This document shows positions 10,343 through 37,454 of a stretch of 64,000 bases of DNA, one piece after another. The position numbers and the translations under genes are program-made. Every line of letters starts with the position of its first letter. Within the stretch, counting starts at the first letter, position 1. This DNA is from Trebouxia sp. TZW2008 (taxonomy: Eukaryota > Chlorophyta > Trebouxiophyceae > Trebouxiales > Trebouxiaceae), in contig BDIU01000164.1 of NCBI GenBank assembly GCA_002118135.1, forward strand, positions 1 to 64,000, read 5' to 3'. The notes beneath the pieces were generated by a model. The model made no database searches. It saw only the letters and a program-made list of their open reading frames with translations, and was not told the DNA's origin.

Positions 10343-13300
10343 TCAAATTCGCCCTGAAGCCCTTGGATGAGTCATGCTCACATGCCGGCCAGCTATTGTG
10401 CTGCTTGGTATTCTGGCTGCCATCACATTTAAACATAACAGAGGCTCTGCCGACAGCGGCAGGTGCAGTACATCAGGTAACAGCACCTGTGCGGACAATC
10501 CAAGGCTGTCATCCTTCTTGGAGCACACGCCTTTGCCTCGTATGCATGAGTCCATGTACCCATGACGGCGATTGGACAAGCTCGTGGGGAAAACTTGGCA
10601 CAGAATGATCTTTTCTGATGCACCCCTGAAGGTATGCTGCCCCATATGCCAGACCTGAACCCCAACAGGGGTTGTGGGGATCTCCTCTGGGGTTGCTGCT
10701 ACCCCCATGTCGGCTTTGCCACTCCTACTTGCATCTGCTATAGCATGCGTCTCAGCCTGAGCGCCACTCTTGCTTGTATCTGCTGCAGCAGTTGTCTCAG
10801 CCTGAGTGGCCCCTTCAATTTCCTGACTGGTCAGATCCGCCTTGGCATCTTTTTGCTCATCGACCCTCGTTTTTTGAGACACTGACAGTGCATCTGTGCT
10901 GCCATCCGAAAACCTCTTGACTCCCGTACCTTTTACTGGTGCAGACACAGGCGGTGCATCTGTTTTGCCATCTTGAGGCATCGTCACTTCAGCAATGCCG
11001 CTGCTGTTTCTGCTGAAGGCTGCGTTCTCATGCACAGTCATGCCTTGGGGAGTTGCCCCCGGGCTGCCAGAAGAGCCCTTTGCCCACCAGTCATCAAAGT
11101 CCCTGTCAGACAGTACAATGGCGTTACCACATCTGTGAATGCAAGTTTGCATGGCATGCTGTTTCATATCTGCATGGCATGCTGTCTGATATCTGCATGG
11201 CATGCTGTTAGATATCTGCATTGCATGCTGCAGGAGGAATTGGGGGCATGAAGACACGCAAAGCGCAGCATGTGCAAAGTGGTAAGACAGATGGCTGCAA
11301 GAACAGCATGCCAGTCCTGTGTCCAAAACGAAGTCTGTGTTGGCACACATGGGCTCATTACCTCAGCTGAATCTATTGTTGTTTGAGCAAATATCACATT
11401 TAGCTACACCCTTTGGGATGTTGAAACAATACGCATTGGTCCATACCTAATATTGCGTGAGCCCAAGTCAGTGGCACGAGACATCAGCCGCAGCAACCCC
11501 ACCCTAGAGTTGGGGGTGCCCATGGACACACTTCTTCTTCTGGCATAGGCATCCAGGTCACCACTGCCAGCTGGCAAACCGGATTCTGGATCTTTTGCTG
11601 CAGCAGCTGCTGCTGCTGCAACTGAAGACAGACCCCTAGGAAGGCTCTTGGAGTATCTGCTCATTGTGGATGACCGCTTGCTGAGCGTCACTTGTCTGCC
11701 CACAATGCCTGCAGTGACAGCCCATTATCAGTCTGCATCGTGTGGTGACACAGTGTCGAACGCAACTGATGACAGGCCTCTTTAGGGAGGCTCTTGAAGC
11801 ATCCGCTCATTGTGAATAATTACTTGCTCATTTTCACCTGTCTGCCCACAATGCCTGCATCATGATGGACTGTCAACTACATTGCGGTTATCTGGCGACA
11901 CAGCACGGTATGCATCTTTGATACACAGGGCACAGGTTAGATGGTGACAGGTTCTGACTATGATGCCCCATCAAGATGCAAGCTGCATTGACGCACGCTG
12001 ATAATAGTGCTGCAGCGCTGTCTGATGTTCATGTATGACGCCTTGTTTGAAAGTTCCTGACTTCAGTCTCAGCCTTGACCTTTCTGATAAATTGATTTGC
12101 TCTTGATGTGCCGTTGCAAGTGTTATCAGGCTCAAATTGACCCAGTGCTAAATGCATGCAGATAATTGGTGCACCAAGCTAAGGGCATGTGCTAAGCAGG
12201 TCAGCCTAAGAAGATCTGGAATGACATTGTTTTGTCTGGCTTCCACAAGTTGAACATTAGATGTCCTTACAAAGACGCTCAGAACAAGCCAGCCTGGCAA
12301 AACAGCTGGCAAAACAGAGCTTGGGCCACACACACCTAGCACATGTGCTGGACGGTGTAATGACTGTTATGATGTGCTGACCTGACAAGGATGTCTTTGA
12401 GCAGATCAGCTGTGCAGCTGCCTTGTCAACTTCTTGGCGGTGCACCAGCAGTGCATGGTTCTTTTGGGCAATATGACTCAGCGGGGCTGCTGGCAAGGGC
12501 CCTATGCCCTGAGCCCCTGTCCACTCCAGGCCCACTGTGTCTGCCAGCGATTGCTCAACCAGAATCTGCAGCAACATCACAGACTTTTGACCGTAATATG
12601 AAGCCATCTAAAAAAGTGTCAGCGTCTGTGAAGACATGCACAAAGCTTATCATGGATGCAGGCAAGCGTCGTGGACAAAGGCTAGCAGCTGTCTATCATG
12701 TACAGCTCAAAAGTCATGGACAGAGTTGCAGCTTGCCAAAATGTGGCAAGGCAGCTGGACAGACAAGTGATACAAGCTGGGTTGTGAGAGCTGATACATG
12801 CAGGCATGCATGGTTGGCAAACAGAGGGATTCCACAAATACAGTACTCTCTTTGTAATGACACTCATGTAAGGACAATCTTGATGTAAGGACAACGCCAT
12901 TGGTACCCAATCACTGCATTCTGACTGCACTGTTCCCTCTGAGTAAGGACAATTTGATGTAAGGACAAGTTTTTGGTAACCGAAGCAGTTGTTACGAAGG
13001 GAGTTTACTGTATGTGATTACCTGGCCTGCATTGCAGCCGCCCCAAAGGCGTGATGCTCTGCTGACTGGCGCTCCCACATAGTCAGCACGCCCTGCATTG
13101 ACATGCAGCATCTTGATGGCTCTATCTTGTTTGGTGCATTGCAAGTGCTGGTCCAGGGCTAAGTCAGCAGTGTCAAGGTACCCAACTCAATGCACTTGGT
13201 GCCAAGATGTAGCAAGGACAGCTGAGACCACATAATTCTGCTGGCAGGCATCTTGTCAGCCTTTGCAGCCTTGACAGGTGCTCAGCGGTGAACAGGACTT

Positions 13301-16300
13301 GCTGAGAATGCAGGTCCAGGTTTTGTCATGTTAGGCCACACCCAGGCTCAATTACATGCAGAACTCTGAAAAGTCCGCATGCCTTAAATGTGTTACAATT
13401 TGGCAGAGCTGAGCAAGACAGGTTTGATACACAAGCTTGTACACTTTACTGTAGTACAGCGCATAGTCTCAGCGCTGCTTGCTTGTCTGGCCATGAAGAC
13501 TTGAGACCTGAAACAAGCTTTTGGTTGGGGAACTCGTGCGGTCTCACTTGGTAGCAGCTCTCTGTTCTCAGTTGGTATTGGTTTGCGGTTTGAACCCAGG
13601 CTGGTTCAGCCACATGACTGTCCAACAATAAAGCATGTCAGTAACCTCCACAAGCTTTGTGTCCATGTGGAACTCAACAGAATCAATAACGACGACCATA
13701 CTCACTTCCCTTGCAGGTTCTACGTGAGACACCAGTAGTCATGAAGCATACCTGTAAGAGCATGAGGGCACAGCCTGGTGATAGGCCCTTGCACTATGCC
13801 CACTTTGGCTGACAAGCCCTTGAACAGCAGCTGTCCCGTGACAGGGTCATGCTGCTCGGTTGTAGGGGTCATGCTTAGCAATGCTTCACCCCAAGGCAGC
13901 CTAAAGCATCAGCACAGCAGCTGTCAGCTAAGACTGGTAGCGCAGAGCTGCTAAGCTTATATTGACAGGGTCATGTCTCTACTGCAGGCTCCATGCTTAG
14001 CAGTGCCTCACCCCAAGGTAGCCTACACCACCAACACAGCAGTCATAAGGTCAGAGGCTGACAGGCCCGCAAACAATAGCTGGCCTGAGACAGGGTCATG
14101 CTACTCTGTGATACGGGTCATGCTTAGCGATGCCTCACCCCATGGCAGCTCACAAGACCACCATGTCATTTGTGAGCTGTGAGCAGCAGCACAGCCAGTG
14201 AGACTTTACATCAACAGCACTGCACTGTTGGCCAACCATGGCAGCGCAGCGTTTCTGAGGTTGCATTTGCAGCAGAACTATTCTACCTTTCTGCCTCAAA
14301 GCAAAGCAGCCTGCATTGACAGCACACATTGCTTGGTCTCCATTGCTCACGTCGTACAGTGGCAGCATTGCAAGTTCAATGATGATGGTACTTGCTGCCT
14401 GTGAGGCAGTGAGCAGCTGGGAAACTATAAATACTTCGGCTTAGGTTGTGGGCGTGCAGATCAAACAGTCAAGCATGGCACTGCAAGATCTCACACAGAT
14501 CTTGCTGCTGGCACAAACCCAGCAGTGCTCAGCTCAACTTGTGTATATAGCTCTGGACTGCAGAAGCAAATAGCAGCGTGTCATGCATGTCTCCAGGAGC
14601 TAAGCCATGTCATGCATTCCACAAGAAGCTTGAAGCCTGTCATGCATTCCAGAAGCTTGAAGCATGACATGCAATTCAGAAGAAACATGGAGTATGCATT
14701 CACGAGCAGAGGGTGCATACTTGAGAAGAGCCAGCTGCAGGGTCACAGCCCACTCCAGGGCTGCCCTAGCGCTGCAGAAGGCCAGCAGGAAAGTGCCCTC
14801 CTTTTCTTGGCACTCGTAACCGTCAAACAGCAGCAGGGTCGTTCGCAAGCAAGACTTGAATCTGCCCAGAGCTATCAGGGCCAGCTGCTTATCAACGCTG
14901 GCAACCTCCTGCAATTGAGACCGCTGACAGTGAGATCAGCTGAAACTACAACAAGGCACTCATACCCATCAAACAGCAGCAGAATAGTGCGCAGGCAGAA
15001 TTTGAACCTCCCCAAGGCAATTAAAGGCCAGCTGCTTATCAACGCTGGCAACCTCCTGCAGTTGACAGACATGAGCTGATTCAGTGTGTTGTGTCTGTGT
15101 TGATCTGCAGGAAGGTGCAAATCCTCAACTTCTGCTTGTCACTGATGGGCGCCTCCAGCAGTCAACAACAGGTGAGATGTTTCAAAGTAAAAGCTTTTGG
15201 TGACAGTGTATACAGATCAATCCAAACAGTGAAGAGAGATTATGGCTCAGGCAGTGACACAGCAGCAAGGTGGTGCGCAGGCAGGACCTGAACCTCCCCA
15301 AGGCAATCAAGGCCAGCTGCTTATCAATGCTGGCCACCTCCTGCACTCGCAATCTTTTTCGGTCTGTCACTGGCAGAATGATCAAACAACAGTTCTTGTA
15401 AGACACAGCTTGGGCTGTTAAACAGCAGCAAGGTGGTGCAATCAGGACCAGCCGCTTGCAGTCAACACCATGTGGTCCACTTGCAGACCCTGTCTACAGA
15501 CTTTCAAGGAGGTGAGCAAAAGAATTTGCTGCACAACTAGCACGTCATGCAGATCAAGGCCAGCTGCCTGCTAGGCACGCTGCTTGCCGTTTATGGGCTC
15601 CCCGGGTTTTGCTTGAAGCACAGCATGATTGTCAAATGTGTATACACCAACACCTCCACGCTTGAAACCCATGTGTGAGCGAACCAGCAGCACAAAATAG
15701 CATCATGCTTCGTGACATGAGGGGACTTAGAACAACGAGACAAGGAGGATGTCTTGCATAGCATGCAAGCAAATGCGGAACAATGTGAAAGTTCACCTTG
15801 CAGCCTGATTCAGAAGCAAAGGCAAAGGTGACATCCGGCAAGTCCTGAGAGGAGCGCTGGGTGGTGACAGGCGACCCCCCCAGACCCAGGTGGGCTCCCA
15901 GGGGGTTGATCTTCTGGTGAGGGGTTACCTTGCCTGCAGCTTGAGCCCCAGGGGCATCAAAGAATGAGGGAGCAACCTGTATGCAGAGGTTGTGCATTGT
16001 CAACTTACACAAACGGAAAATTGTTGCATTACAAGGACCACCTCAGGGCACATCACACAGACGAGACCGCCTCATGTATGACAAATGACACCAGTCACAA
16101 ATCAGACGTACTGGCATGAGGCAAGGACTGTGATGACCAATATTCTCCAATATAAAGCATGCGATACACGCATACATTCAATGTGGCATGCAAGGACAAC
16201 CTACGCATGCAGCCTGACATCTTTGTCAGCATGTGTCCTGCTTTCTGCTCATAGTGCTAAGCAGCTGTCAAACAGCAGCGCAATGCAGATTGGAGGATCA

Positions 16301-18043
16301 TGGACATGCAGCGGATGAGTGCACAGCGCTGGGCTGCGAGGGGAGGGAAAGAGGCACAAGGGGGAAAGGAGCGAGGACAAAAGGGAAGAGGGGAGTGACA
16401 AAAGGGAAGGGGTGTAGGAGCTCAGCACAGCAGCAAAGATATAGGCTCACCTGGCTGGTCTGATCAAAGGGGGCAAAGAGGGCGGCCCTCTCCACCAGGG
16501 CTTCAGGCAGGATCTGCCTCACATGCTCCCCAGCAATACATGGCAGCGCAGCGTCATCAGCCGTATATGCCCTGTTACGGCACTCTGACAGCAGGTAACT
16601 GCCCATGTCTATGAGGATGCAGGCAGAGTGCTGCTGAGACGCCAAAGCGGTGGACTCTGAAGCTGCGTGGGCAGCTGATGACCTGCGGCGAAAGCTGGTG
16701 AAGAAGCTGCTGACCCCGCTTCTGGAAGTTTGGTGCTCTTCCATGCCCACTGCAGGAGAAATCAAAGAGGTCAGATCAATTGACTTGCCTGCTTGAAGAA
16801 GATAGGCATGTTCAACACACTGCTGAAGAGAGCATTGCGCAAAACAGACTGGCCGACTGAAGATGTCACTGTGAATGGTCTAACTATGTCAGACAGGAGA
16901 AGAGTACCAATCAAGCCTATATGCTTGAAGGACTACACTACATCAAGCCATTTCGGCCTGAGATTGGTGGGAATTTGGGGCTTGAGCTTCTGATGCCAGG
17001 GAAAAGGGCTCGCCCACGCAGGGATAGGGAAAACGAGGGCAGCAAAATGATGACTGACCAAAAAGATTTATCTTTTGGCAAGTGCTGGAACCTCCATTGC
17101 TGAAAAGCTGAAAACAAAGAACAGGGCAAGCGTCGAAGGAGGGCCCACAAAACAGAAATTGAGACAAGAAATCGCTGAGCATCAAGGTGTATCCCTGCAG
17201 ACAGCCTGTGGGCAGGCAGCAGAGCATTGCTGAGGCCTCTTATTCACTTGAAGGAAGCAAAGCATTCAGCACTTTAGTTTGAGAGCCTACGGACTAGAGG
17301 TTCAGAGGCGGTGAGACTGACCATCGAGATATATCTCTGTGGAGAGTCTGTGAGCAGGCAGCAGGTCAGTGCTGGACGCCCCCCTCTGCTTGAACGACAG
17401 CAAAACAGCAAGCTTTGGTGAAGGAGTGGAGGTGGAGGTGTTTGCAAGGAGCGGGCCAGAGTAGGGGTTGAGACGTGACTGACCATCAAGATGTATCTCT
17501 GTGGACAGTCTGTGGGCAGGCATCAGGTCAGTGCTGGAGCCACCCATCTGCTTGAAGGAGAACCAGGAGGACCGCTTCTGCTGCTGCAAGGCGGCTTTGC
17601 CGGCAGCTGACTTGGACATGCCACTGACAGCTTGCAGCAGGCCGTCTGTGCTGTGAGTGCTCTGTGCACTTGGGCTAGACGCCTGCAGTTGAAGCATTTG
17701 GGTGAGGTGTCTACTGTGTGTTTGCTGAACAAGATTAGAACCAATAACTGCCTGGAGAGGATGCAGCGTTGGCACCGGTGAGCTTTTGGCTGTGCCTGTG
17801 CTCAGAGTAATGTGGTGTCAGGAACATGAATGGGTTGTTGGTGGACCAACACCAGAAGGAGAAGAAGAAGAAGAGGAGAACAAATGTCAGACTCAAAGAA
17901 CAGCATGTGCGCCTCGCCTCAAATGTGTTGACCTAAATGCTTGCTGAAGAAAGACCAGAACAACAGGGCAAAACAGCATCACACCTGAGCTGGATGCAAA
18001 GGTGCAACTCCTACACCGCAATCCTCCAATTGAATCATGCAAT

Positions 18044-18080
<37 letters not shown>

Positions 18081-21000
18081 TCTGCAGCCAGACCTGCAAA
18101 CATTGATATCAAGCGCCCACCAAGGGCGTCTTGAAGGCTGGTCTGAAGTTCTCCGAGCTAATCTTACAGCACCATGAACAGCATCATCAGCAGCAGCATC
18201 AACAACAGCATCAATGGCAATGATGCCAGCAATGTTGTCTGGAGTCAGATCATGTCAGATCAGTGCAAAGTGACAGCATCGGCACCTACCAAGGGCTTAC
18301 TGAAGGCAGGTCTGAGGCCCTCAAAGCTAATCTTGGATCGGCTGCGCTCCAGACTGGACCTAGGGCACTGAAAGGTGAAGGCTGGCAGCTGAATCTCATG
18401 CAGCCGCCCTGCTGTATGCTGGGCAGTGGCATTGCTCAGCAGCACCTGCCCACCTGCTGGCAAGTGGGAGACTGCCTCTGTCAACTCAACCATCTCGCCT
18501 CTGTACTCCACCTGCTTGGTCACATTATGAACCTGCATAGGCAGATACTTTGCTGAGCCAATCACTGATGGAATGATGGTGGTTGCACTGCTCCCGCAGC
18601 CGACGTGCTGCGTGCTGTGCTGTGGCGTTGCTCAGCAGCACCTGCCCAACTGCTGGCAAGTGGGAGACTGCCTCTGTCAACTCAACCGTCTCTCCTCTGT
18701 ACTTCACCTGCTTGGTCACATTGTGGACCTGCACACGCAACTGTCATGCTGAGCAGACCAACCATGAGTGTGTCTAGAGGCAGCTAGCTGAATGCTGGAC
18801 CTTGTTGAACAGGACCTGTGCCTGCTGGCTGAGTAGGCTGGTAGAGAGCATCTGCCAGCTACACTCTAACTTTCTGATCCATGCCTGTGTAGTTACACGC
18901 TGCACCACATCCTGTGCACCACCATGGATGTGCTCAGCATTTAATTGGTCTGGGCAAGGGGATCAACACGAGGCCATGCTCTTAGAGAATTCGCTTGAAT
19001 GTTTGCACAAGCTTACACTCAAGGTAGGAATTCTTTAGCAGGGCATTGCTTGAGAAGCGCTGTGGATCAGTTATAGGACTCACAATGATCTCTTTGGGGA
19101 CGCCAGTATTGATAGCCATTCTGACCCCGAGCCCTCCTGAACAGCAGCTTGCCTTCAGGGCAGGTCTCCAGCCTAGCCTGAGGCTGTTGCACAAGGCTGC
19201 GCATAAACAGGCAAGAGGTGGCTTGCAAACGCAGTTTCATGACATGCAGACCGCTGACTTACAATGATCTCAGTAGGGACACCAGTGTTGATAGCCATCC
19301 TGACTCTGAGTCCCCGGAACAGCAGCTTGCCCTCAGGGCAGGTCTCAAGGCGGGCCTGAGGGTGGTTCAACAGCTCAAGGGGCCAGGGGGCCTCTAATAG
19401 GGCTAGCTGCACATGCAGGGCCCAGCCTATCGCATCCAAGGGCTCATGAAAAGCCACAATGAAAGCATCTCCTTCTGTGGTTACCTACAGCATTGGATGA
19501 GTGAAGTCAAGTATGTTGATATCGAAAACTGGTTGACATTGTGATTTCTATTAGGCTGGCAGGGCTAGCTGCATGTGCAGGGCCCAGCCTATGGCATTCA
19601 GACGCTCGTGAAAACGCCACGGCGAAAGTGTTTTTTCTTCAGTAGTCACCTGCAGTGGCAACAAGTGTATGTGAAGGCCTCAGCAATGAGGGTGTGTCAG
19701 CAGCTCAGGGGGTCTCCAGCAGGGCTAGCTGAACATGAAGGGCCCAGCCTGTCGCGTCCAGAGGCTCATGGAAAGCCACGACGAAGGCATCCCCTTTTGT
19801 GGTCACCTCAAGTCACATGAGCAGCATGTCAAGGGCTCGGACAGCAGCTGCGGGTGAAGCACTCAACAATAAGGGTGGGTCAGCAGCTCAGGGCGCCAGG
19901 GGCCCTCTAGTGGGCTAATTGCATGTGAAGGGCTCAGCCTATGGCGTCCAGAGGCTCATGAAAGGCCACAATGCAAGCGTCCCGTTCTGTAGTCACCTAC
20001 AATGGCAGCAGTCAGCTTGTTGGCATCATAGCTAAAACAGTTGAGCAGCAGAGACCGCAGGGTGAGGTCGTGCAAAGCACAAGCATGTGTCATAGCGTCA
20101 CAAAATTGCAGGCTGAAACAAAGGGGTCATCAGCAAGACGCTGACACTGCAGCCGGTGAGACTTCACAGAAGCAGCCCTGTTCAGGCCAAGCAATCAGTA
20201 GTAGGTCACGAGCGAGGCAGCTCACCTCATAGCCAAAATGATTGGGCAGAACGGATCGCAAAGTGTGGTCATGCAGTGCCAGAGCAGCGTTTGTGATGCG
20301 GCTGTTCAACGCAGCCTGCAGCTAGCGCTTGACCATGCTTCACCTCATGCCCAAAATACTTGAGCAGCTGAGACCAAAGGGTGTTGCCATGTCATGCAGA
20401 TGGCGTGAGCAGAAAAAGTTGTCCACCACCACTGAGCACCCCACAGATTCTCACCTCGTAGCCAAAGTACTTGGGTAGTAGAGACCGCAAGGTGTGGTCA
20501 TGCAGTGCCAGAGCAGCATTCATGATGCGGCTGTTCCACTCCCACAGGGCCGTGCTGCCCTCCACATCAGTCATGGCAATGCTCATGCCCTGATGGAACA
20601 CTTCCATACCCATGCCCTGTCGCTCCATCAATGTCCCAGGGGCATGCCTGCAGCAGCAGAACCGCTTTGTTAGTCTTCATGGTGCGGCTGCCTCACTCCC
20701 GCGGCGCCGTGCTGCCCTCCACATCAGTCATGGCAATGCTCCATCAGTGTCCCAGGGGCATGGCTGCAAAGACAGCAACAGATCATAAGCATCCTCCTCT
20801 GAAATACACTGCAGCTCACAAAGCAACAAGAAGAAGCAGGAGAAGGTGTCAATGCACAACAGTCATGGCGATGCTCATGCCCTGGTGGAAGAGCTCCATG
20901 CCCATGCCCTACTGGTCCATCAGTGTTCCAGGAGCATGCCTGGAGTGACACAGTTGTTGCATAGGCAGCCTTGTCAGCTAGAGGCTAAAGAACATCCTTG

Positions 21001-24114: not shown

Positions 24115-24707
24115 GCCTTGTTCCGTGCGCGTCTACTCGCTACCCAGCGCAGGCCAACGCGCTGACCAGCATCTCGCCCTCCCTGTATAGTTGCTCAGGG
24201 CATGCCTGCTTGTGCACGGTAAATGCTGAAATGCTTGATCACCGGGCAAGGGCGTCAGAAATCGCAAGTCAGCTCTGGACTTCGAATTCGCCAAATCTAG
24301 CTCATCTCTCAAAGCTTTTGGCTCAACATTTTTTGGTGGCTCAAAACTTCAGTCAGTCACGTGTCAAGCAAGCTGTACATTTGCACGTGATTGAGAAGGG
24401 CAAAATCAGTTTTCGTCGCTTTTGCTTTCGATCACCTCGATTTGACCTTGATCGCGTATGGCTGGCTCGCAAAATGAGCCACGATATTATGAGTCAGCAG
24501 TCGAGGTGCATCATGCGGTATGTCTGGCTTCGCAGGCTTTTCGCAGTGATGACAGCTTCTGCGGCAAGCTTCAGGCTTAAGGCCAGCCAGTACTGACTGC
24601 TACTCCGATACTGCTTCATACGACTGCATAGGAAGTCCTGCTGCTCAATCCAGCATGCTGTCAAGGTCAAGTCAGCAAGCGCGGCGTAAAGCACCCTAGC
24701 AGCGAAC
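24115..24707. promoter_or_regulatory. Shared divergent promoter of the two cyclase genes
   Basis: This 593-bp segment separates the start codons of cyclase A (24114, minus) and cyclase B (24708, plus). It contains no exon I can support. Two CACGTG boxes lie 20 bp apart at 24358-24363 and 24384-24389. CACGTG is a common bZIP/bHLH target in plants and algae; its use here is inference. No obvious TATA box faces either gene. Confidence 0.6.
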
Positions 24708-27700: not shown

Positions 27701-30700
27701 CCCAAGCTTACTTGAGATTATGTATCTGCGTATTGCTACAGCAGCAGACGCATGTCACCTGAGCCTCACATCAGCAAACACCCTCATGGCATCGGCTGTG
27801 TTACCTTTTTGTCGCAGCATCTCTGCATTTCCTGTGAATATGACATTGGGTGGTGGCTGTCTGGATGTCCCTAGCTGAAGCTACACCAGGCGCTGACATG
27901 CCACACAGGTCAAGCTTCATGTGTGCATGGCAAGCCTTGTGGCCTGTACCTCAACAGTGCAGCTGTTTGTGATGCAGACTCTGTGAATTACTTGGTCCAG
28001 ACAGGTGCTTTCTACCAGTGTACGCTTCTCAGTTCACCTCAGATGCTGCATCTTGTGCAGTCTCGGCACACAGCAATGCTGTTGCAAGATGCACTTGTGT
28101 TGCCACTCTATAGGCAAGGCAGCAAGCATTCAAAACTAAAACCTTCTGTCGGACTTGACTGCAAGCATGAGCTGTCACAGATGTGTGATTCAGCAATTGC
28201 TCACAGGAATGCCCCTGAAACCTTAATGGGCAGGCAAGGCATGAGAATGGATCTCTTTCACAGCGGTGTCACTCTGGTGATGTCAGACATAGAAGGGCTG
28301 CAGGCTCTACACCAGGCAACCTCACTGCCAGCATGAGCTGCCAGACATATGTTGACCAGTGACTGTTTATAGGAATGCCCCTGTACTTTAATGGGCAGGC
28401 AAGGCATAGGAATGGATCTCTTTCACAGCGGTGTCACTCTGGTGATGTCAGACATAGAAGGGCTGCAGGCTCTACACCAGGCAACCTCGCTGCCAGCATG
28501 AGCTGCCAGACATATGTTGACCAGTGACTGTTTGCAGGAATGCACCTGGGACTCTGATGGGTAGGCAAGGCAAAGGCATGGACCTGTTCCACAGCGGCGT
28601 CACCCTGGTCATGTCTGATATAGAAGGGCTGCAGGCCTTGCATGCGGCCACTTCAGCTCGCTGCATGGGCGCAGCTCTGACTCTGCATGAGAATGCTCTC
28701 AGAGCAGTGCTGCCCAAGTACTGCGGCTATGAGGTCAGTCATACAACTCAGTCCAATGAGCTGTCACCAAGTGTTCCATAAACCTAGTTTAGGGTTGTTG
28801 CTGCTTTACCAATGTGTGGATCACCTGGATTGCATGCCGATGTCGCTTTAGACCAAGTAGCGTGTCCAAAACTCATGATATGGTTTCTACCTGTCAATTT
28901 GACAGCGAAACTTTTCAGTCATGTTGAGCAAGTCTCACGTTGTGCATTCAGCGTCATGGCTGCAATAACTCATTTCCTCATTTCCTGTCTCTTGCCTTTC
29001 CTGACTTTTGGTTTTTCTCTCTGTCCTAGGAGTCAATTGTAGGAGTTTTCGCTGCTCTACCAATGCAGAAGGCAGAAGGAGCTATTGGCAAACTGCATGG
29101 GCATGACAGTAACACAAGGAGCAAACTATTGGTGCTAATGGCATACTGACTGCAGGTGCTGACAGAAGGAGATGCTTTTGTTGTGGCCTTCCATGACCCC
29201 ATTGATGCCATAGCCTGGGCATTGCACGTTCAACTGGCGCTCATGGAGGTGGCCTGGCCCACAGACCTGCTGCAACAGCCTCAAGCCAGAATGGAGACGT
29301 GCCAGGATGGGAAGCTGCTGTTCAAGGGCTTGCGTGTCAGAATGGTCATCAACACTGGTGTCCCTGCTGAGATCATAGTAAGTCCTGCCACACACAGGTC
29401 CCGTCTAAACCATACTATTTATCCACGCTCCGGTTCTGTGGCAGCTGCTGGGGTGTTCTGTGCGGCATCAACCATTGTCAGGGGCTTGTGCTGTAGTGAT
29501 TGCCAGATGTCTTGTGAGCGGTCAATTACTTCTGTGCAGCAGGCACAGCTGCTTGGCAGGTGCATTGAGGCGTTGTGCTGGCAATGCTTTGTGCTATGGG
29601 CTTGAGCCTCAGAGGCATATGTGTTTGCTCAAATGCTGCAGACCTTGACTTGCAACAAATTTCCTCACAATGTAACTATCTATGCGTTGATAAAATGTAT
29701 ACAGCATGCCAAAGGGCATGGAGACCAGTGACGGTTTGATGGTTGTTTGCAGGTGCATAGAGCCAACAAGCATGTGGAGTACAGAGGGGATATTGTGGAA
29801 TTGACAGATGCGTTGCTGCGACTTCCCGCTGGCGGCCAAGTTCTGTTGAGCGACACCACGTTCCAGCGCATCGGTGGCCGCCTGCATGAGGTCAAGCTGC
29901 CGTCCTTGCCAAAGACTGGCGAAGCGCTCGAAAGGTGCAAGAACAGCATCGAAGGGCAACGAGTGATCATCGACGGGCAGTCCAGGTACCAAAGTTTGGA
30001 GGGAGTCATCAGGACCGTCGGCACCGGTACCCCGCCTCGAAACAGCACCGAAGCGCAAAGGGTCAGCATCGAGGCGCAATCCAGAAACCGGAGCTTAGAA
30101 ATAGTGGCCCGGGCTGGCGACAGTCACAGCTTGCCTTCAAGCAGACGCAGCAGCACAGACTCCGCCGTCAGGCTTGTGGTATGACCTGCAATCCTCAATG
30201 CAAAGCGTCCTCAGAATATGATTTCATCAATGCGCTCTCTGACTTGACTAGCATACAGAAGCGTTGAAGTGCCTCCAGACAATTGATCCAAAAGCCTTTG
30301 ACTGTTAAGTGAGCAGCTCATCAGCTGCTGCATGTGCTACACGCATGCACCTCAGATCCCATGACCCTGCTAGGCGCTTGTAGATGCAAGGCAATGGAGT
30401 TCTATCTATTTGATTGAATGCAGGGCGCTAGGCCAGCATCAAAGACAGCAGCTGAGCAATTGCTAGAGGTGGTACAGGCTGCCCCCTCCCCTCTAGCCAG
30501 GGGTGCTCCACCAACAATGGAGGAAAAGCTCAACATGCAGCGTATGGCCCTCAAACTGCAAAGGTCAGCATGCATGCAGGGGCAAAGTTTGATCTTCATC
30601 AGCAGAACTGTAATTGCTCTGTGCTTGAGAACAGCAGCATTGTTGTTGCTCATGCTCTGGAAACCAATGCTTGCAATGTAATGCTGCTGCTGCTGCTGTT

Positions 30701-33700
30701 GATTCTGTTGTCAATGCTTATGCTGCAGCTGTTGCTTCTGTACCTGCTGCTGATGCTGCTGCTGTCAGTGCTCAAGATGCAGGCGGCGATGCTGCCGGTG
30801 CTTATATGCTGTTGTTGCTGCTGCTGTAGTAGGCTTGCAAAGGTCAAAGCTAGACCTTGTGCTGCTTTGTTAACAGGGGCAAGAGGTTTAGTTTGGAGCT
30901 TGCACCAGCAGGCAACAGATTCAGCAGTCCAGATGATGTCATGGGTAAGCATCCTGAAGACAGCTTCTTGGCCATATGCTGCTCTGCCTACTCTTGCAAG
31001 TACAGGCGGCATCCTGACCCAAAGGATTGAAACTTGACAGGCTGCTTTTGACTCTATGACTTTGATTCCTGCCGCATGTTGCATATGCATGTCAATGCAT
31101 CGTGGGTGCGTCACAGTGTCATGTTGTCAGAAATGCACAAGTCCAGTGCAAGCGCAGCACAAGATAGAGCTACGTTTGAACAGGTACAGACAAGCAAACT
31201 TTGTGAAACTTGAGCACAAGTCAAGTCTTTTGCCAAAGTCAAATGCTCGATGGACAATGCAGATAGAGTGTTGCCCAAGATGTTGAGCCTTGTAAGCCAA
31301 GCATGGCTATTGGTTTCACAGTTTCTGTAGCGCCTCCTGTTGGGTTTTGAACACAGTGATAACAACAAGCAGGAATAACGGCCAGAGAACTTGCATATCC
31401 AACAAGGCACTCTGCTGCAGATATGACTGATTACGATGACACTCAGTCAGTTTCCGGGGCAGCTGCTCCTGCCCCCACAGCAGCTGAGGCAGCAGCTTCT
31501 GCAGCTCTGGCATCCATGCTACGCACGTCCTGTACCATCATAGACATGGGCAGTTACCTGCTGTCAGAAATCCGCAGCAGGGCTTATACGGCTGATGACG
31601 CTGCGCTGCCGTGTATTGCTGGGGAGCATGTCAGGCAGATCCTGCCTGAAGCCCTGGTGGAAAGGGCTGCCCAGTTCCCCCCTTTTGACCCCAAAAGACA
31701 GGTGGGGGCCATCTTGTCATGCTGTCATGATATGCAGCATGAGTGAGGCCCATCCTTGCATATTTGTTTTTGCATAACCAGACTGCACTTGACAAGCTGC
31801 GTACACTGTGTCTTGCATTCTGATTGGCAGTTGCGTTTGTCTTGTCTTGTCACACTCGCCAGACCTATTAGCTGGGTCAAGATTGCCAGGATCACTCAAC
31901 ATGTTGTTCCGTCAGGTGGCGCCTTCATTCTTTGATGCCCCTGGAGCGCAAGACTCGAATGAAGCAACCACCGGCATGGCCCCCCTACCCTCAGCAAATG
32001 CGGTTGTCCCTTCTGCTGTCTCGCTTGCCTCAGTGCAGCCCTTGTCGGATCGGGACCTGCCAAACATCACCTTTGCCTTTGCCTCTGAAGTGGGATACAA
32101 AGTAAGCCTACTGCCCCCTGCTGCTGTTGTGACTTGCCTAAGGTCGCTTTGCCTTGGCTTCTGAATCTGGGTACAAAGTAAGCTCATCTGCTGCTGCTGC
32201 TGCCGCTGCTGATGTTGTCTCGCTTGCCTCAGTGCAGCCCCTGTCAGACCGATATCTGCCAAACATCACCTTCGCCTTTGCCCCTGAAGTGGGATACAAA
32301 GTAAGCCTACTGTCCCTGCTGCTGTTGTGACTTGCCAAATGGCGCTTTTGCCATGGCCTCTGAGACTGGGTGCAAAGTAAGCTCATCTGCTGCTGCTGCT
32401 GCCGCTGCTGATGTTGTCTCGCTTGCCTCAGTGCAGCCCCTATCAGATCGTGACCTGCCAAACATCACCTTTACCTTTGCCTCTGAAGTGGGATACAAAG
32501 TAAGCCTATTGTCTCTGCTGCTGTTGTGACTTGCCTAATATCACTTTAGCGTCGGTTTATAAATACTGGTGCAAAGTAAGCTCATCTGCTGCTGCTGCTG
32601 CCGCTGCTGCTGCTGTTTGAATTGCCTCCGTGCAGTCCCTATCAGATCGGAACCTGCCCAACGTCACCTTTGCCTGTGCATCTGGCAAAGGCAACGTTGG
32701 CTCACAAAGTCAGCCCATCTATCTGCTGTTGCTGTTGCCCCTTCTGATGTCTCGTTTGCGTCTGAGCAGCCCCTATCAGATCATGATATGCCCAACATCA
32801 CCTTCGCTTTCGCCTCTGAAGTGGGCCACAAAGTAAGCTTGTCTACCTGCTGCTGCTGTTGCTGCTGTTCTGGCTGTTGTTGCTGATGCCTCTTCTGCTG
32901 TGATGTTTGCCTTTGTGTAGCCCCTGTCAGACCATGCCCTGCCACCTGTCCCCCTGCCCCTGAGGTCGGATACAAGAAAGCTTGTCTGCTGCTGCTGCTG
33001 CTGCTGCTGTTGCTGCCCCTTTGGCTGTCTTGCTAGCTCTGTATAACCGCTGTCTGTGCAATTGCTGTCGGATCAGGACCTGCTGAACCTGATCTTTGCC
33101 TTGGCCTTTGAGATCAGCTATCAAGGGTGCGCGTCTATTTGACCACTGTTGCTGATTTATCATGCTGAAGAGAGCTTTGCTTGCACTGCTGCCGCATCAT
33201 ACTGAACACATGCTGTGCAATCTGTACAGGAGGTGGCCCGGATTGACAAGCAGCAAGGGCTGATTGCCTTAGGTAGGTTCAAGTCATGTGTGCGTACCAG
33301 CCTGCTGCTGTGTGGAGGGTATGAGTGCCAGGAGAAAGAGGGCACTTTCATGATAGCCTTCCCTGGCCCTAGGGCTGCTGTGGAATGGGCTCTCACCCTC
33401 CAGCTTGCCTTGCTCAGGTGCTGAAAGCATAGCGCAGCATGCATATCACGACACAGCTGAGCACAGCATATGTAGCATGACACAGCTCAGCATAAGTTCA
33501 ATTGATGCCTTCAAAGATCATTATCAGCGATGCACGGCAGCAAATGCTGCCTTGCAGTTGCCTGTGAGTTTGTAGGCATCAAAAGAGGCCTTCAAGTGCC
33601 TTGCTTGGGCTGCCAGCGCTGTCTTGAACATCAATTGAGAGTGATTTGAAAAGGCATGCGCACTGTGTCTGTGACTGACTTGCAACAATTGGCCTTGTAC

Positions 33701-36700
33701 AAAAGCAAACTTGAACGCAACAGCCGATTAAGAATACGCTGGCTGGAGTATGTGAATTTGTTCACGTCTGTTTGTTCTTGAGTGTGGATTGCCGTTCAGG
33801 CTGCCCTGGGGTGAGGGCTTGTTGGGACTAGCCCCAACGCAAGAGGAACGCAGCCCTGTGACGGGGCAGTTGCTGTTCAGAGGCTTGGCAGCGCGAGTTG
33901 GAATCTTTCATGGACCCATTGTCAAGCTGTGCCCCCACAGCACAACAGGTACTCACCTGTTGACCAATGAGGACCAAGATCATGTTGTCATATGCATGCT
34001 GTGCTCACTAACACACTAAATCTGTTTGAATTGCCTCAATGAATGCGTGCTCTTCTAGTCAGCATGCAATGTGCTATATGTCAAGGTTTTTCTGTCAAGC
34101 TGCGGCTTGATATCATTACAGGTGAGTGCGTGCTGTGCTCATGGGCGTTATCAATCTGCTGAAACTTCTATGGACTTGTTGTCAAGCTGTGTCCTCACAG
34201 CTCAACAGGTCAGCATCTGCTGTGCTACTAGGCGCGCTGGCCTTTCAAAACAGCAACCTGTACTACTACTTTTCTGACCAATTTCTTGCAAGGCAAGCTG
34301 ACTTACGAGACCATGTAACAAACAATGCTCACTCAGCCCTTTATTGTTAATATTACTGGATGCAGGGCGAGCAGACTACTTTGGCACTCCAGTGAACAGA
34401 GCTGCGCGCTTTTGGTCAGGCTGCAACCCAGGCCAGGTGATTTCCTAGCTCTCATGCACAGCAGCACTCGATATGCATCACAGCAACCCAGGCAATGTTT
34501 TTGCAGTGTCATGCTCAGCAACATCCGTTATGCACAGCAGCGCTGTGTTTGCGTCCCAGCAACCCAGGCCATGTGACTATTTGCACTTTCATGCATGGTA
34601 GCATTCTGTATGTATCACAGCAGCCCAAGCCAGGTGACTTTTGCAAGGTCGTGCACAGCAGCATTTGTGTACACAAAAGTAACAATGATATGCTGTGCAG
34701 ACAGACAGCATTGTCTTTACATTCAGATAGTCATTGATCCTTTTGTGTCAACAATGCTGAAGGCAAGCATCACTCTTGCAGATACTGTTGGAGAAGTCCA
34801 TGGCAGAGGCAATAGGGCTGGAGTGGGCCAGGCTGGAGGACATTGCCCAAACCTGCCCTGCCGCTGCTGACAGCCACATTGCACTCCAAAACCAAGGCCT
34901 GTTGAGATTGACAGCCATCACGCTTCTATGCAGATACTACTAGAGAAGTCTTTGGCAGAGGCAGTAGGGCTGGAGTGGGCAGGGCTGGAGGGCATTGCCC
35001 AGACCAGCCCTGCTGCTGCTGAGAGCCACATCGCAGTCCGAAACCATGGCTTGCTGACTCAACGCATGGAGGCTGACTTGGCCACCTCTCGTAGCTCCCA
35101 TCAGCACTCCTTGTCCTCACCGCTGCAATCAGGTGATCACCTGCCCATCTGGCCACAAGTGATTCTGTCTACAGCTGTTAAAACTGCATTGATGGGAATG
35201 CAAGCCCTTGCCTGGTTCTCCAATGATGGTCAATGCCTGCCTGCACCTTGCAACAAGTCACCACGCCAGGTCACATAGGTACTCCTTGTCTTCACCTTTG
35301 CATTCAGGTGATTGCCTGCTTGAGTCGCTACTGACGGACTGCTCCTTGTTGAGCCAGAAACAGTCAGCAGGATGCGATCAATCACCCTGTATGATGCACC
35401 CTTCAATATGCATCGTCTGTTACAAAACACATGGGTCATTAAGAGTGTGAGCCGTCAAAGTGTGGTGTGAGACAAGCAATGTGCTGGCACCAGCACAGGC
35501 ACAACATCAGCTTTTCAGAAAATGAAGCACTGACAAGGAAGACAACTTTGTGCTTGTCACGTGGCTGTGCAGCTTGCCGTCTGTCGCCAAGCACTGCATT
35601 CTTTCCCAGCTCCAGTCAGGCTCCTGCCTTATCTCTCAATTGGATACACAGAACTATGCTGGGCTCTTAGCATTCACAGAGGCTCGCTTCATGATGCCTG
35701 CAATTTTCTGTTCTGCATGGGCAGGGAGGCTTGGGTCCACGATAAAGCGCACAAGCTCAGCAGTTCCCAAGGTCAGTTTTGGCAACAGGCGTGCATCAGT
35801 GGATATGCAGCTGCCAGCAGTGTACATATCAGATGGGAATGGGTGCCTGAGCCCTAGGCCAGCCAGCCGAAACCCTAGGCGCAGCGTGGACTTGTCCCTC
35901 ATAGCTTCAAATTTGAAGACCGCCAGCATGGCCAGCAGCATGCTGAGGTCTTCAGATGAAGGAGGAATCAAAAGCGCTGATGTGGAGCTGACTAACAGGG
36001 CTGCTAGCCGCTCACAAGGGCATGAGGACGCCAGCAGGCCTAGTTCGCGCAAGAATTCGCAGGGTGCAGGGGAGAAAAAGAACCCTAGGCGGCCATCACA
36101 TGGCTCTGGCGAGGTTTTGGCTGTTCAGCAGGCGTCAAAGAGCATGGACTTTTCAGGACTCCAAAGGGCACTGATGATCAACAACCCTGCCTTTGCCAAA
36201 AACCCATTGCAGACTGACGATGCTCCAAAAGTTGGTGATGATATCAAAGCTGCGCAGAAGCTTGGGGACGACATAAAAGCTGCATCAAAGCCTGGTGAGC
36301 ACTCCCTGCTGCCACCACACAATCAATGTTTTGTCTGACTTTCAAAAGCTGAATGTCAGATAACCCTACAAAGATGCTCAGAACAAGCCTGCCTGGCGAG
36401 ACAGGACTAAAGCCACACACACCTAGCACATGTGCTGGAATGTTCAATCATTATTTGTGTTGCCACACAGCCAGTTGAGCAAGTCAGTCAGTCAGTCAGT
36501 CAGTCAGTCAGCTCCTGTGTGACTCAGTCACCATGTGACATTAGCAATAAACAATGCACTGCTGCCTTTTGCAACAGAGGCAAGCTCTCATGGCAGCCAC
36601 CAAGTGCAGTATTGCTTGATTCATGGTATGACTTTGCAACAGCCCATCACAAAGTGCAGCTTGCCCAAGGCAGCAGCCGCCAACTAGTCCTGCTGCAACT

Positions 36701-37454
36701 AGTCCTGCTGTGCTGTGCTTTGCCACGTTGTGCCATGCTACGTATGCTGTATCATGCTATTTTACGCTGTGCTGTGCTGTGCTATGCTATGCTATGCTAT
36801 GCTTTGCAACTAGTCCTGCTGCAAAGCATGAGGCTATGCTTGTCCACGCGCGTTCATAAGCGCCTGTCCATGTCCACGAATTGCTTGTTGTATTGCGTAT
36901 CTGCTGAACAGGGACACAGCCTTGAGAGCAAGGAGCTGCTAGCCATTATAAATGACAATCATGCCCATTGCGGCAGCTTGCCAATAGAACAAGTCCTGCT
37001 CAAGAGCATCAGTCAGTCTTCAAAAGCATCAGTCACTCTTTGTCCATCTGTTGCAGACCTGCTGAATAAGGACACAGCCTTAGCAGCTGACAGTAAGGAG
37101 CTGCTACCTGGGATGCCTGCTACTTTGCCAAGCTTACCTGTCAAAGTGGAGGTCTACAATGTGGGGCAGTACAGCTACAAAGGCATCAACGCAGCAACCA
37201 ACGTGTGCCAGATACTGCCAGCTAGCTTGTCAGAGCGCAGGAACAAGCAGCGTGACGCTTCTACAGCACCAAACACTAAGGTGGTGTGCCTCAAGAAGGA
37301 TGACAGCTTTCACTTCACGGCACAGGCGCCGCTGCCAAGCGTATTTCATCTGCCATTGGCCGCTGAGCCGCCTTTGTATATAAATTTCCTGCATTCAGAC
37401 TTTCAGAGCTTCAGCCACATGTCATCTGGCAACCCACGTGTCACACGGGCATAG
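24708..37454 (+). CDS. Cyclase B: LRR-receptor class III adenylyl cyclase, C1-C2 in one chain
   Basis: Paralogue of cyclase A; 1405 aa, 20 exons, 4218 nt in phase: 24708-24765, 24864-25133, 25343-25522, 25737-25817, 26074-26175, 26648-26905, 27320-27494, 28538-28733, 29156-29377, 29753-30178, 30424-30563, 30877-30944, 31421-31701, 31916-32101, 33230-33417, 33800-33948, 34366-34436, 34934-35132, 35725-36294, 37057-37454. Order: signal peptide (ALLWLAVTGVLLSSAVQA); ectodomain with YCRWWGVECC and an LRR (LVGTFPPLYTELPDL); TM about 333-357; C1 with metal residues Asp402 (VMSDIEG) and Asp446 (TEGDAF) but no N-x3-R motif; C2 with FAFASE (no metal Asp), Lys917, and GRADYFGTPVNRAAR (Asp997, Asn1004, Arg1008). 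Lys/Asp suggests ATP specificity, so C1 and C2 should form one active site. Exon 2 has a GC donor. The protein tail is serine-rich, then a domain shared with A. Confidence 0.92.
28207..28537 (+). repeat. Two near-identical 5' copies of cyclase B C1 exon
   Basis: Units beginning at 28207 and 28373 repeat the first half of exon 28538-28733, including VTLVMSDIEGLQAL, with periods of 166 and 165 bp. The intronic part between them (catgagctgccagacatatg) is virtually identical in both units. Each copy has an AG in acceptor position (acag, atag) and ends near caccag|gcaacc, so inclusion as an extra exon cannot be excluded. Confidence 0.9.
32102..33130 (+). repeat. Tandem array of the cyclase B C2-entry exon end
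   Basis: After exon 31916-32101 the segment encoding PLSD..LPNITFAFASEVGYK recurs at 32238-32300 and 32437-32499 (both 63 nt, open, with gcag in front and gtaagc behind). It recurs again at about 32633-32700, 32771-32832 and, eroded, 32920-32980 and 33055-33120. CTG-rich tracts and short echoes of 'gcttctgaa.ctgggtacaaagtaagc' lie between. Confidence 0.88.
34048..34210 (+). repeat. Copies of the end of cyclase B exon 33800-33948
   Basis: Blocks matching 'gttgtcaagctgtg.cc.cacagc.caacag|gt' lie at about 34158-34210 and, weaker, 34085-34125. Both end in donor-like gtcagc or gtgagt. Confidence 0.7.
34437..34690 (+). repeat. Four tandem echoes of cyclase B NxxxR exon end
   Basis: The exon end 'caacccaggccag|gtgatt' and following intron bases recur as units of about 75-80 bp ('cacagcaacccaggcaatg', 'cccagcaacccaggccatgtga', 'cacagcagcccaagccaggtga'), each followed by a 'tttgca..tcatgca.agcagc' block. 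They do not carry the catalytic motif itself. Confidence 0.75.
34784..34916 (+). repeat. Alternative-looking duplicate of cyclase B exon 18
   Basis: This segment has its own cttgcag acceptor and begins ILLEKSMAEAIGLEW, against ILLEKSLAEAVGLEW in the modelled exon 34934-35132. The frame stays open through DSHIALQNQGLL. I see no clear donor at its end, so I model the downstream copy. A copy of the exon 18 end is also at about 35278-35312. Confidence 0.8.
36482..36510. repeat. (AGTC)n microsatellite
   Basis: Seven near-perfect AGTC units in the last cyclase B intron. Degenerate CTGTG/CTATG tracts follow at about 36714-36804. Confidence 0.95.
36900..36950 (+). repeat. Copy of the start of cyclase B last exon
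   Basis: 'ctgctgaacagggacacagccttgagagcaaggagctgcta' resembles the start of exon 37057-37454, with a small deletion. No good acceptor precedes it. Confidence 0.75.

What the first reader, a model, noticed from the sequence alone, without database searches (positions are those of the whole stretch)
10343..37454. Head-to-head inverted pair of LRR-receptor adenylyl cyclase paralogues
Two genes of 1351 and 1405 aa run divergently from a 593-bp centre. Seven exons have identical lengths in both (102, 258, 175, 222, 188, 149, 71 nt), and the phases match nearly throughout, so this is one inverted duplication followed by strong protein divergence. Both keep the signal peptide, ectodomain, TM, C1 and C2 order. 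Receptor cyclases in such a divergent arrangement could be co-regulated subunits or ligand-diversified sensors.
Basis: partly seen in the sequence, partly recalled or inferred. Interest (0 to 1): 0.9.

Follow-up and report, generated by a model that had tools for sequence, protein, structure and literature searches.

The report
Head-to-head split receptor-cyclase gene pair
In a lichen-forming green alga two neighbouring, oppositely read genes encode sister membrane receptors, each with two cyclase domains; one has kept the metal-binding half of the enzyme and the other the nucleotide-binding half, so the two proteins probably have to join to make a second messenger.

Summary
Genes A (-, 24114-10343) and B (+, 24708-37454) start 593 bp apart; the seven exon lengths match, with AG..GT borders. 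The closest proteins are from the lichen alga Trebouxia; in Trebouxia C0004 orthologues of A and B have neighbouring locus tags. Each encodes signal peptide, weakly LRR-like ectodomain, one TM helix and cyclase domains C1 and C2. Best PDB matches: trypanosome receptor adenylate cyclases.

New: the copies have decayed in opposite halves. A keeps the C1 metal site but lost the catalytic Asn of C2 (Ser or Gly, 4 of 4 strains). B keeps C2, but its C1 loop is replaced in 3 of 3 strains; the first metal Asp is gone in C0004 and C0005, not in this genome. The same genome holds a second head-to-head pair, on contig C191 (469 bp), in another branch of the family, with the same split. Eight loci without such a partner keep both halves where readable.

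Best explanation: A and B form a heteromer with one composite site, C1(A)+C2(B). Against: this B keeps both Asp; no B was found in Trebouxia C0009. Activity and substrate are untested.

The parts
10343..24114 (-). Gene A: receptor twin cyclase with intact C1 metal half and degraded C2 (about 1318 aa)
24708..37454 (+). Gene B: receptor twin cyclase with intact C2 half and degraded C1 loop (about 1322 aa)
24115..24707 (.). 593-bp shared intergenic region between the two start codons, presumably a bidirectional promoter (inferred)
   Evidence: sequence
22634..24114 (-). A: signal peptide and first part of the ectodomain (37, 243, 177, 84, 102 nt exons; LRR-like)
21874..22131 (-). A: 258-nt ectodomain exon
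21213..21387 (-). A: 175-nt exon with the transmembrane helix
18290..20647 (-). A: C1 cyclase domain (exons 20647-20455, 19484-19263, 18532-18290); metal-site motifs MTDVEGSTALWE and TTEGDAF intact
16451..16788 (-). A: exon with the C1 tail segment (IDMGSYLL...GEHVRQILPEALVERA); that it belongs to the C1 fold is suggested by the aligned range of an orthologue
12382..15976 (-). A: C2 cyclase domain; 71-nt exon 13092-13022 encodes RADYVGAPVSRASR (catalytic Asn replaced by Ser)
24708..26175 (+). B: signal peptide and first part of the ectodomain
26648..26905 (+). B: 258-nt ectodomain exon
27320..27494 (+). B: 175-nt exon with the transmembrane helix
28538..29890 (+). B: C1 cyclase domain (exons 28538-28733, 29156-29377, start of 29753-30140); both Asp kept but loop GSTxLWEWN replaced by GLQALHAAT
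31421..31701 (+). B: exon with the C1 tail segment (IDMGSYLL...GEHVRQILPEALVERA)
31916..35132 (+). B: C2 cyclase domain; 71-nt exon 34366-34436 encodes RADYFGTPVNRAAR (Asp, Asn, Arg intact)

Best explanation
A and B are two subunits of one heteromeric receptor cyclase. Each is a single-pass membrane protein with an extracellular, LRR-like sensor and two cytosolic class III cyclase domains. The ancestral protein made its active site from its own C1 (two metal-binding Asp) and its own C2 (adenine-contacting Asp, ribose-orienting Asn, transition-state Arg). After an inverted duplication, A kept C1 and let the C2 active site decay; B kept C2 and let the C1 active site decay. In the complex A's C1 pairs with B's C2 to make the nucleotide site, while A's C2 and B's C1 form a vestigial or regulatory pocket, as in soluble guanylate cyclase and mammalian adenylyl cyclase. 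The shared 593-bp promoter region would keep the two subunits in step. Shown: gene arrangement, homology, residue losses, opposite rate shifts, a second head-to-head pair from another branch of the family with the same pattern. Inferred: physical association, activity, cAMP as product, co-expression, ligand.
For: Residues (25 rows chosen from the hits): of the 16 rows outside the pair, the first C1 Asp is kept in 15 of 15 readable and the C2 Asn in 15 of 15 readable. A type: C1 intact, C2 Asn lost in window, C0004, C0005 (Ser) and C0009 (Gly). B type: C2 intact in window, C0004, C0005 (a fourth B row, P0066, lacks that stretch); C1 loop changed in all three, first Asp to Ser in two. Orthologue identity window to C0005: A C1 87.4%, C2 76.7%; B C1 78.0%, C2 92.5%. 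Copy-specific changes against an outgroup consensus (A-only, B-only): C0004 C1 5, 21 and C2 15, 3, Fisher 3.9e-5; C0005 5, 20 and 15, 3, 5.1e-5; window 10, 18 and 13, 7, 0.078 (the three rows share history). Changes on the stems at sites at least 90% conserved outside: B 5 in C1 and 0 in C2; A 0 in C1 and 3 in C2, Fisher 0.018 (looser cut-offs 0.024 and 0.033). Trees: A clade 100/99, B clade 100/100; stems in C1 B 0.19, A 0.05; in C2 A 0.23, B unresolved with short branches; with other rows C1 B 0.26, A 0.074; C2 A 0.14, B 0.083. Second pair on C191, first in-frame ATGs 469 bp apart: + gene C1 intact, C2 without Asp, Asn and Arg; - gene C1 loop degraded, C2 intact; branch lengths again opposite (C1: - gene 1.5, stem of the + clade 0.44; C2: 0.51 and 1.03). 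Eight own-genome loci without a match on the opposite strand of their contig: C2 Asp and Asn kept in 8 of 8, second C1 Asp in 8 of 8, first C1 Asp in 7 of 7 readable (strands). A and B orthologues of Trebouxia C0004 have neighbouring locus tags and the same 51.8-kb contig length. Precedent: NeoR and RGC1/RGC2, an obligate heterodimer encoded on opposite strands of one cluster (PMC8815786, passages).
Against: In the window species B still has both C1 Asp residues, as has the - gene of the second pair, so B might work alone; loss of the first Asp is seen only in C0004 and C0005. The rate contrast is only suggestive for the window rows taken alone (p 0.078). At the loosest cut-off A's stem also has 5 changes in C1 (B 10). 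No B was found for Trebouxia C0009, whose A also lost the Asn (three protein searches); either B is lost or unannotated there. C2 Asn is also lost in two Myrmecia proteins (P0069, P0080) whose partners are unknown, so loss of C2 is not proven to need a partner. The two C191 genes are not shown to be each other's closest relatives (weak support). No complex was modelled, no expression data seen. Trans pairing would require C1 and C2 of one chain to pair with another chain.
Confidence: 0.6

Rival explanations
1. B is a complete cyclase acting in cis (its C1 keeps both Asp in this genome), and A is a pseudo-cyclase that regulates B or competes for ligand.
For: Window B has both metal Asp and an intact C2; A lacks the C2 Asn. 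Pseudo-enzyme regulators are common (general knowledge).
Against: B's C1 has lost the conserved loop in 3 of 3 strains and the first Asp in 2 of 3, and diverges more than B's C2 (78% against 92.5% to C0005), while A's C1 is better conserved than A's C2 (87% against 77%). A pure regulator has no need of an intact metal site.
Confidence: 0.22
2. Two independent receptors diversified for different ligands; each still cycles nucleotides weakly or is decaying, and the opposite losses are drift.
For: Ectodomains of A and B differ most (43.6% identity against 65.3% for C1 and 71.1% for C2); Trebouxia C0009 appears to have A without B; Myrmecia has C2-damaged relatives of unknown partner status.
Against: Losses are complementary, not random, in two head-to-head pairs from different branches, and eight loci without such a partner in the same genome show none in the residues read. 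The four equal cyclase exons compared have dN/dS of about 0.1-0.2 between A and B.
Confidence: 0.18

Closest known systems
Trypanosoma brucei receptor-type adenylate cyclases (GRESAG4.1/4.3, PDB 1fx2, 1fx4)
   Different: Trypanosome enzymes have one cyclase domain per chain, act as homodimers and carry Venus-flytrap ectodomains (PMC6027212, passages); here two domains per chain, LRR-like ectodomain, split sites.
Mammalian membrane adenylyl cyclase C1/C2
   Same: Two unequal cyclase domains in one chain, metal Asp in C1, Asn and Arg in C2; the same asymmetry holds in the algal rows compared.
   Different: Single TM helix and extracellular receptor instead of 2 x 6 TM; here a second split lies on top, between two chains. 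The C2 lysine (K938, mammalian numbering recalled) reads Gln by my eye on the alignment.
Soluble guanylate cyclase alpha/beta
   Same: Heterodimer of homologous subunits with active-site residues contributed by both and a pseudosymmetric site lacking key residues (PMC3591389, abstract and passages).
   Different: Soluble, one cyclase domain per subunit, haem sensor.
Heterodimeric rhodopsin-guanylyl cyclases RGC1/RGC2-NeoR of Rhizoclosmatium globosum
   Same: Obligate heterodimer of membrane sensor-cyclases; NeoR is coded on the strand opposite to RGC1/2 in a cluster said to allow concerted bidirectional transcription (PMC8815786, passages).
   Different: Rhodopsin sensor; [quoted passage not shown]
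Plant LRR receptor kinases with reported cyclase centres (e.g. PMC12185792, PMC5632652; seen in search listings only)
   Same: LRR receptor linked to cyclic-nucleotide synthesis.
   Different: Those centres are reported within kinase domains; here a genuine class III cyclase pair replaces the kinase.

Membership tests
Class III nucleotide cyclase (PF00211) | Pfam match over the curated cut-off | tested here: met
   A 52 bits, B 64.4 bits, cut-off 21.9; best stretch C1 in both.
Class III nucleotide cyclase (PF00211) | Cyclase fold of C1 and C2 | tested here: met
Class III nucleotide cyclase (PF00211) | Complete catalytic set within one chain (two Asp, Asn, Arg) | tested here: inconclusive
   A: Asn missing in 4 of 4 strains, not met. 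B: complete by letters in the window, first Asp missing in C0004 and C0005.
Adenylyl (not guanylyl) cyclase | Adenine-specifying Lys/Asp pair | tested here: inconclusive
   C2 Asp present in window A and B (Glu in A of C0004 and C0005); the Lys position reads Gln in the readable rows (position assigned by eye). The guanylyl Glu/Cys pair was not seen.
LRR receptor | LRR repeats in the ectodomain | tested here: inconclusive
   No LRR hit to E 0.1 in the window proteins; at E up to 1 LRRNT_2 in 7 of 21 and LRR_8 in 6 of 21 family members; a related branch has clear LRR domains.
Trypanosome-type receptor adenylate cyclase | One cyclase domain per chain | tested here: not met
   Two unequal cyclase domains per chain.
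Heterodimeric cyclase with composite site (sGC-like) | Complementary catalytic residues on two subunits | tested here: inconclusive
   Met by letters in C0004 and C0005 (first Asp lost in B, Asn lost in A). In the window the A half is lost but B keeps both Asp with a replaced loop. In the C191 pair the + gene lost Asp, Asn and Arg of C2, the - gene keeps its C1 Asp with a replaced loop.
Heterodimeric cyclase with composite site (sGC-like) | Physical heterodimer, active only together | not testable with these tools
   No assay, no complex prediction.

The most novel reading that the evidence does not exclude
Trebouxia has at least twice turned a self-sufficient receptor cyclase into an obligate two-gene enzyme: in each head-to-head pair one copy kept the metal half and the other the nucleotide half, so that the second messenger is made only when both sensors are expressed and assembled. 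Such a receptor would be a built-in coincidence detector, possibly for signals from the lichen fungus.
Probability: 0.45. Interest if true: 0.85.

Novelty: new variant of a known kind. Interest (0 to 1): 0.72.

Why it matters
It gives a concrete, cheap test of how a heteromeric enzyme evolves from a self-contained one, with two pairs in one genome and intact single-gene relatives as controls. It also points to receptor cyclases as a sensory system in lichen algae. The listings of ten full-text searches (open-licence PMC papers only) showed no title or abstract start that describes such receptors in green algae. In the main text of two Trebouxia genome papers the word cyclase does not occur (PMC12712428, PMC11523091; term searches).

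Tried and rejected
Exon models by dynamic programming with a low intron penalty gave many spurious small exons; a higher penalty gave usable models. Those models include tandem-duplicated exon copies (A 20315-20226 and 18728-18642, B 32238-32300 and 32437-32499) and, in B, two short doubtful exons (27978-28004 and 34727-34762); I left these out, by judgement, in later comparisons. A short A exon (11854-11824) and the linker exons are also unproven.

A chance match of exon lengths was rejected: the matching exons carry the same domain segments in the same order and phase.

The idea that B and the - gene of C191 share a common degraded C1 (their loops look alike, EGLQALHA and EGTQALSQ) was tested by trees of C1 and C2; B groups with A in both, so the likeness is taken as convergence. 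The C191 - gene has a long branch and its exact place is unsure.

A missing B in Trebouxia C0009 was sought with two long queries and one 374-aa query (candidate length limit 0.55 to 1.75 times the query); none found. Orientation of the pair in other strains could not be read (proteins only). Seven further contigs with PF00211 matches in this genome (C126, C184, C108, C183, C314, C113, C388) were not examined; own-genome searches score only the best candidates, so further members or partners may exist. A first motif scan read only one strand of the loci and is superseded (by 45). The fold of the ectodomain was not tested on its own; the structure matches shown are filled by the cyclase domains. 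The value 1/45 for 'the two split loci are the two paired ones of ten' is after the fact.

Rows dropped: from the trees P0066, P0021, P0065 (fragments) and P0003 (second model of C0004 A). The C2 tree leaves out P0072, P0073, P0075, P0077 (gappy or missing C2). Outgroups: 10 rows, 13. Columns with too few outgroup letters or without a majority residue were skipped, and columns with a gap in any A or B row.
Full report
What was checked. The two genes are as described. Translated comparison of the two flanks gives homologous blocks in the same order from the centre outwards. Exons of 102, 258, 175, 222, 188, 149 and 71 nt exist in both genes with AG/GT borders. The start codons lie at 24114 (minus strand, exon 1 of 37 nt) and 24708 (plus strand, exon 1 of 58 nt); the gap is 593 bp. 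Intron phases agree at the first nine introns and at the six counted after the linker. The linker and C-terminal exons rest on my own exon-chaining script and are provisional.

Where it is. The window is part of a 68.5-Mb genome in 527 contigs. The closest proteins come from the lichen alga Trebouxia. In Trebouxia C0005 the B orthologue is annotated as two neighbouring pieces (P0011, P0006).

The asymmetric family. In 25 aligned rows chosen from the hits, the 16 that are not A or B keep the first metal Asp of C1 in 15 of 15 readable rows and the catalytic Asn of C2 in 15 of 15 readable rows. In C1 the position of the catalytic Arg is not Arg in any of them (two rows have an Asn at the Asn position); C2 lacks the metal Asp. 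So the family is built like mammalian C1/C2: one active site per chain, from unlike halves.

The opposite losses. A has C1 motifs MTDVEGSTxLWE and TTEGDAF in all strains seen, but in C2 the Asn is Ser (window, C0004, C0005) or Gly (C0009). B has C2 RADYFGTPVNRAAR in the three strains readable there, but its C1 loop GSTxLWEWN is replaced in all three, and in C0004 and C0005 the first Asp is Ser. In the window B keeps both Asp. Identity of the window protein to its C0005 orthologue: A C1 166/190, C2 122/159; B C1 149/191, C2 147/159. Copy-specific deviations from an outgroup consensus go in opposite directions for C1 and C2 in all three strains (Fisher 3.9e-5, 5.1e-5, and 0.078 for the window rows; not independent). 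Counting only changes fixed on the stems at sites at least 90% conserved outside: B 5 in C1, 0 in C2; A 0 in C1, 3 in C2 (Fisher 0.018). At 70%: C1 A 1, B 7; C2 A 3, B 0 (0.024). At 50%: C1 A 5, B 10; C2 A 5, B 0 (0.033). Of the 90% set, four of B's five changes lie in the C1 metal loop and two of A's three in the C2 base/ribose motif. The tree supports A (four strains, 100/99), B (three, 100/100) and A+B (100/100); in the C1 tree the B stem is 0.19 and the A stem 0.05; in the C2 tree the A stem is 0.23 and the B rows are unresolved with short branches. Trees with other rows agree in direction (C1 B 0.26, A 0.074; C2 A 0.14, B 0.083).

A second pair. On contig C191 of the same genome two more members lie head to head; the first in-frame ATGs of their signal-peptide exons are at 102418 (+) and 101948 (-), 469 bp apart. 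They belong to the LRR-rich branch, not to the A/B group (trees); whether the two are each other's closest relatives is not resolved. The + gene and its orthologues P0074, P0076, P0078 have an intact C1 and a C2 in which Asp, Asn and Arg are all replaced; the - gene has a degraded C1 loop (TDVEGTQALSQ, VDGDAV; both Asp are kept) and an intact C2 (GRADYFGPFVNR and, on the next piece, ARF). Branch lengths are again opposite: C1 1.5 for the - gene against 0.44 for the stem of the + clade; C2 0.51 against 1.03. Both C191 proteins were pieced together by eye.

Controls. Eight other loci of the family in this genome (C340, C181, C169, C123, C333, C178, C188, C40) show matches on one strand only. C2 Asp and Asn are kept in 8 of 8, the second C1 Asp in 8 of 8, the first C1 Asp in 7 of 7 readable (C169 not read). 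Against this, two Myrmecia proteins (P0069, P0080) have an intact C1 and a C2 without the Asn, with unknown partners.

How it most likely works. A and B are subunits of one receptor. Ligand binding to the ectodomains brings the cytosolic parts together; A's C1 supplies the metal site, B's C2 supplies base, ribose and transition-state contacts; the other two halves form a pocket without a full catalytic set that may regulate, as proposed for sGC (PMC3591389, abstract and passages). The head-to-head promoter region would match their amounts, as suggested for the NeoR and RGC genes (PMC8815786, passages). Association, activity, co-expression and ligand are inferred. ATP is favoured over GTP because C2 keeps the Asp used by adenylyl cyclases and does not show the guanylyl Glu/Cys pair (residue roles from PMC2576301, passages); the Lys partner reads Gln, so this is open.

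Weak points. The window's B keeps both metal Asp. C0009 shows A without a detectable B. The statistics per strain are not independent, and the association of pairing with splitting rests on two pairs and was seen after the fact. Gene models lack transcripts.

Noticed in passing
G000:C191:92001-112000 (L039, L040): A second head-to-head pair of twin cyclases with the same complementary loss, first in-frame ATGs 469 bp apart, in the LRR-rich branch of the family.
   Followed up: yes
28203-28636, 32017-32684, 18400-18754, about 19560-19996: Tandem partial duplications (period 165-199 bp for the first three) that carry copies of cyclase exons in both genes, e.g. repeated copies of the C1 metal-loop exon start in B and extra 63-nt in-frame copies of the start of C2; they could be alternative or dead exons.
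   Followed up: partly
P0069, P0080 (Myrmecia bisecta): LRR-type twin cyclases with intact C1 and a C2 without the catalytic Asn; possible partner genes were not looked for.
   Followed up: no
P0022 (Apatococcus fuscideae): A twin cyclase of this family annotated with EF-hand domains as well, hinting at calcium input.
   Followed up: no
P0067, P0024 (eukprot transcripts): Proteins of about 1500-1600 aa with three cyclase-like metal motifs in one chain.
   Followed up: no
Trebouxia C0009, P0005: An A-type gene whose C2 Asn is Gly, with no B-type gene found in the protein searches.
   Followed up: partly
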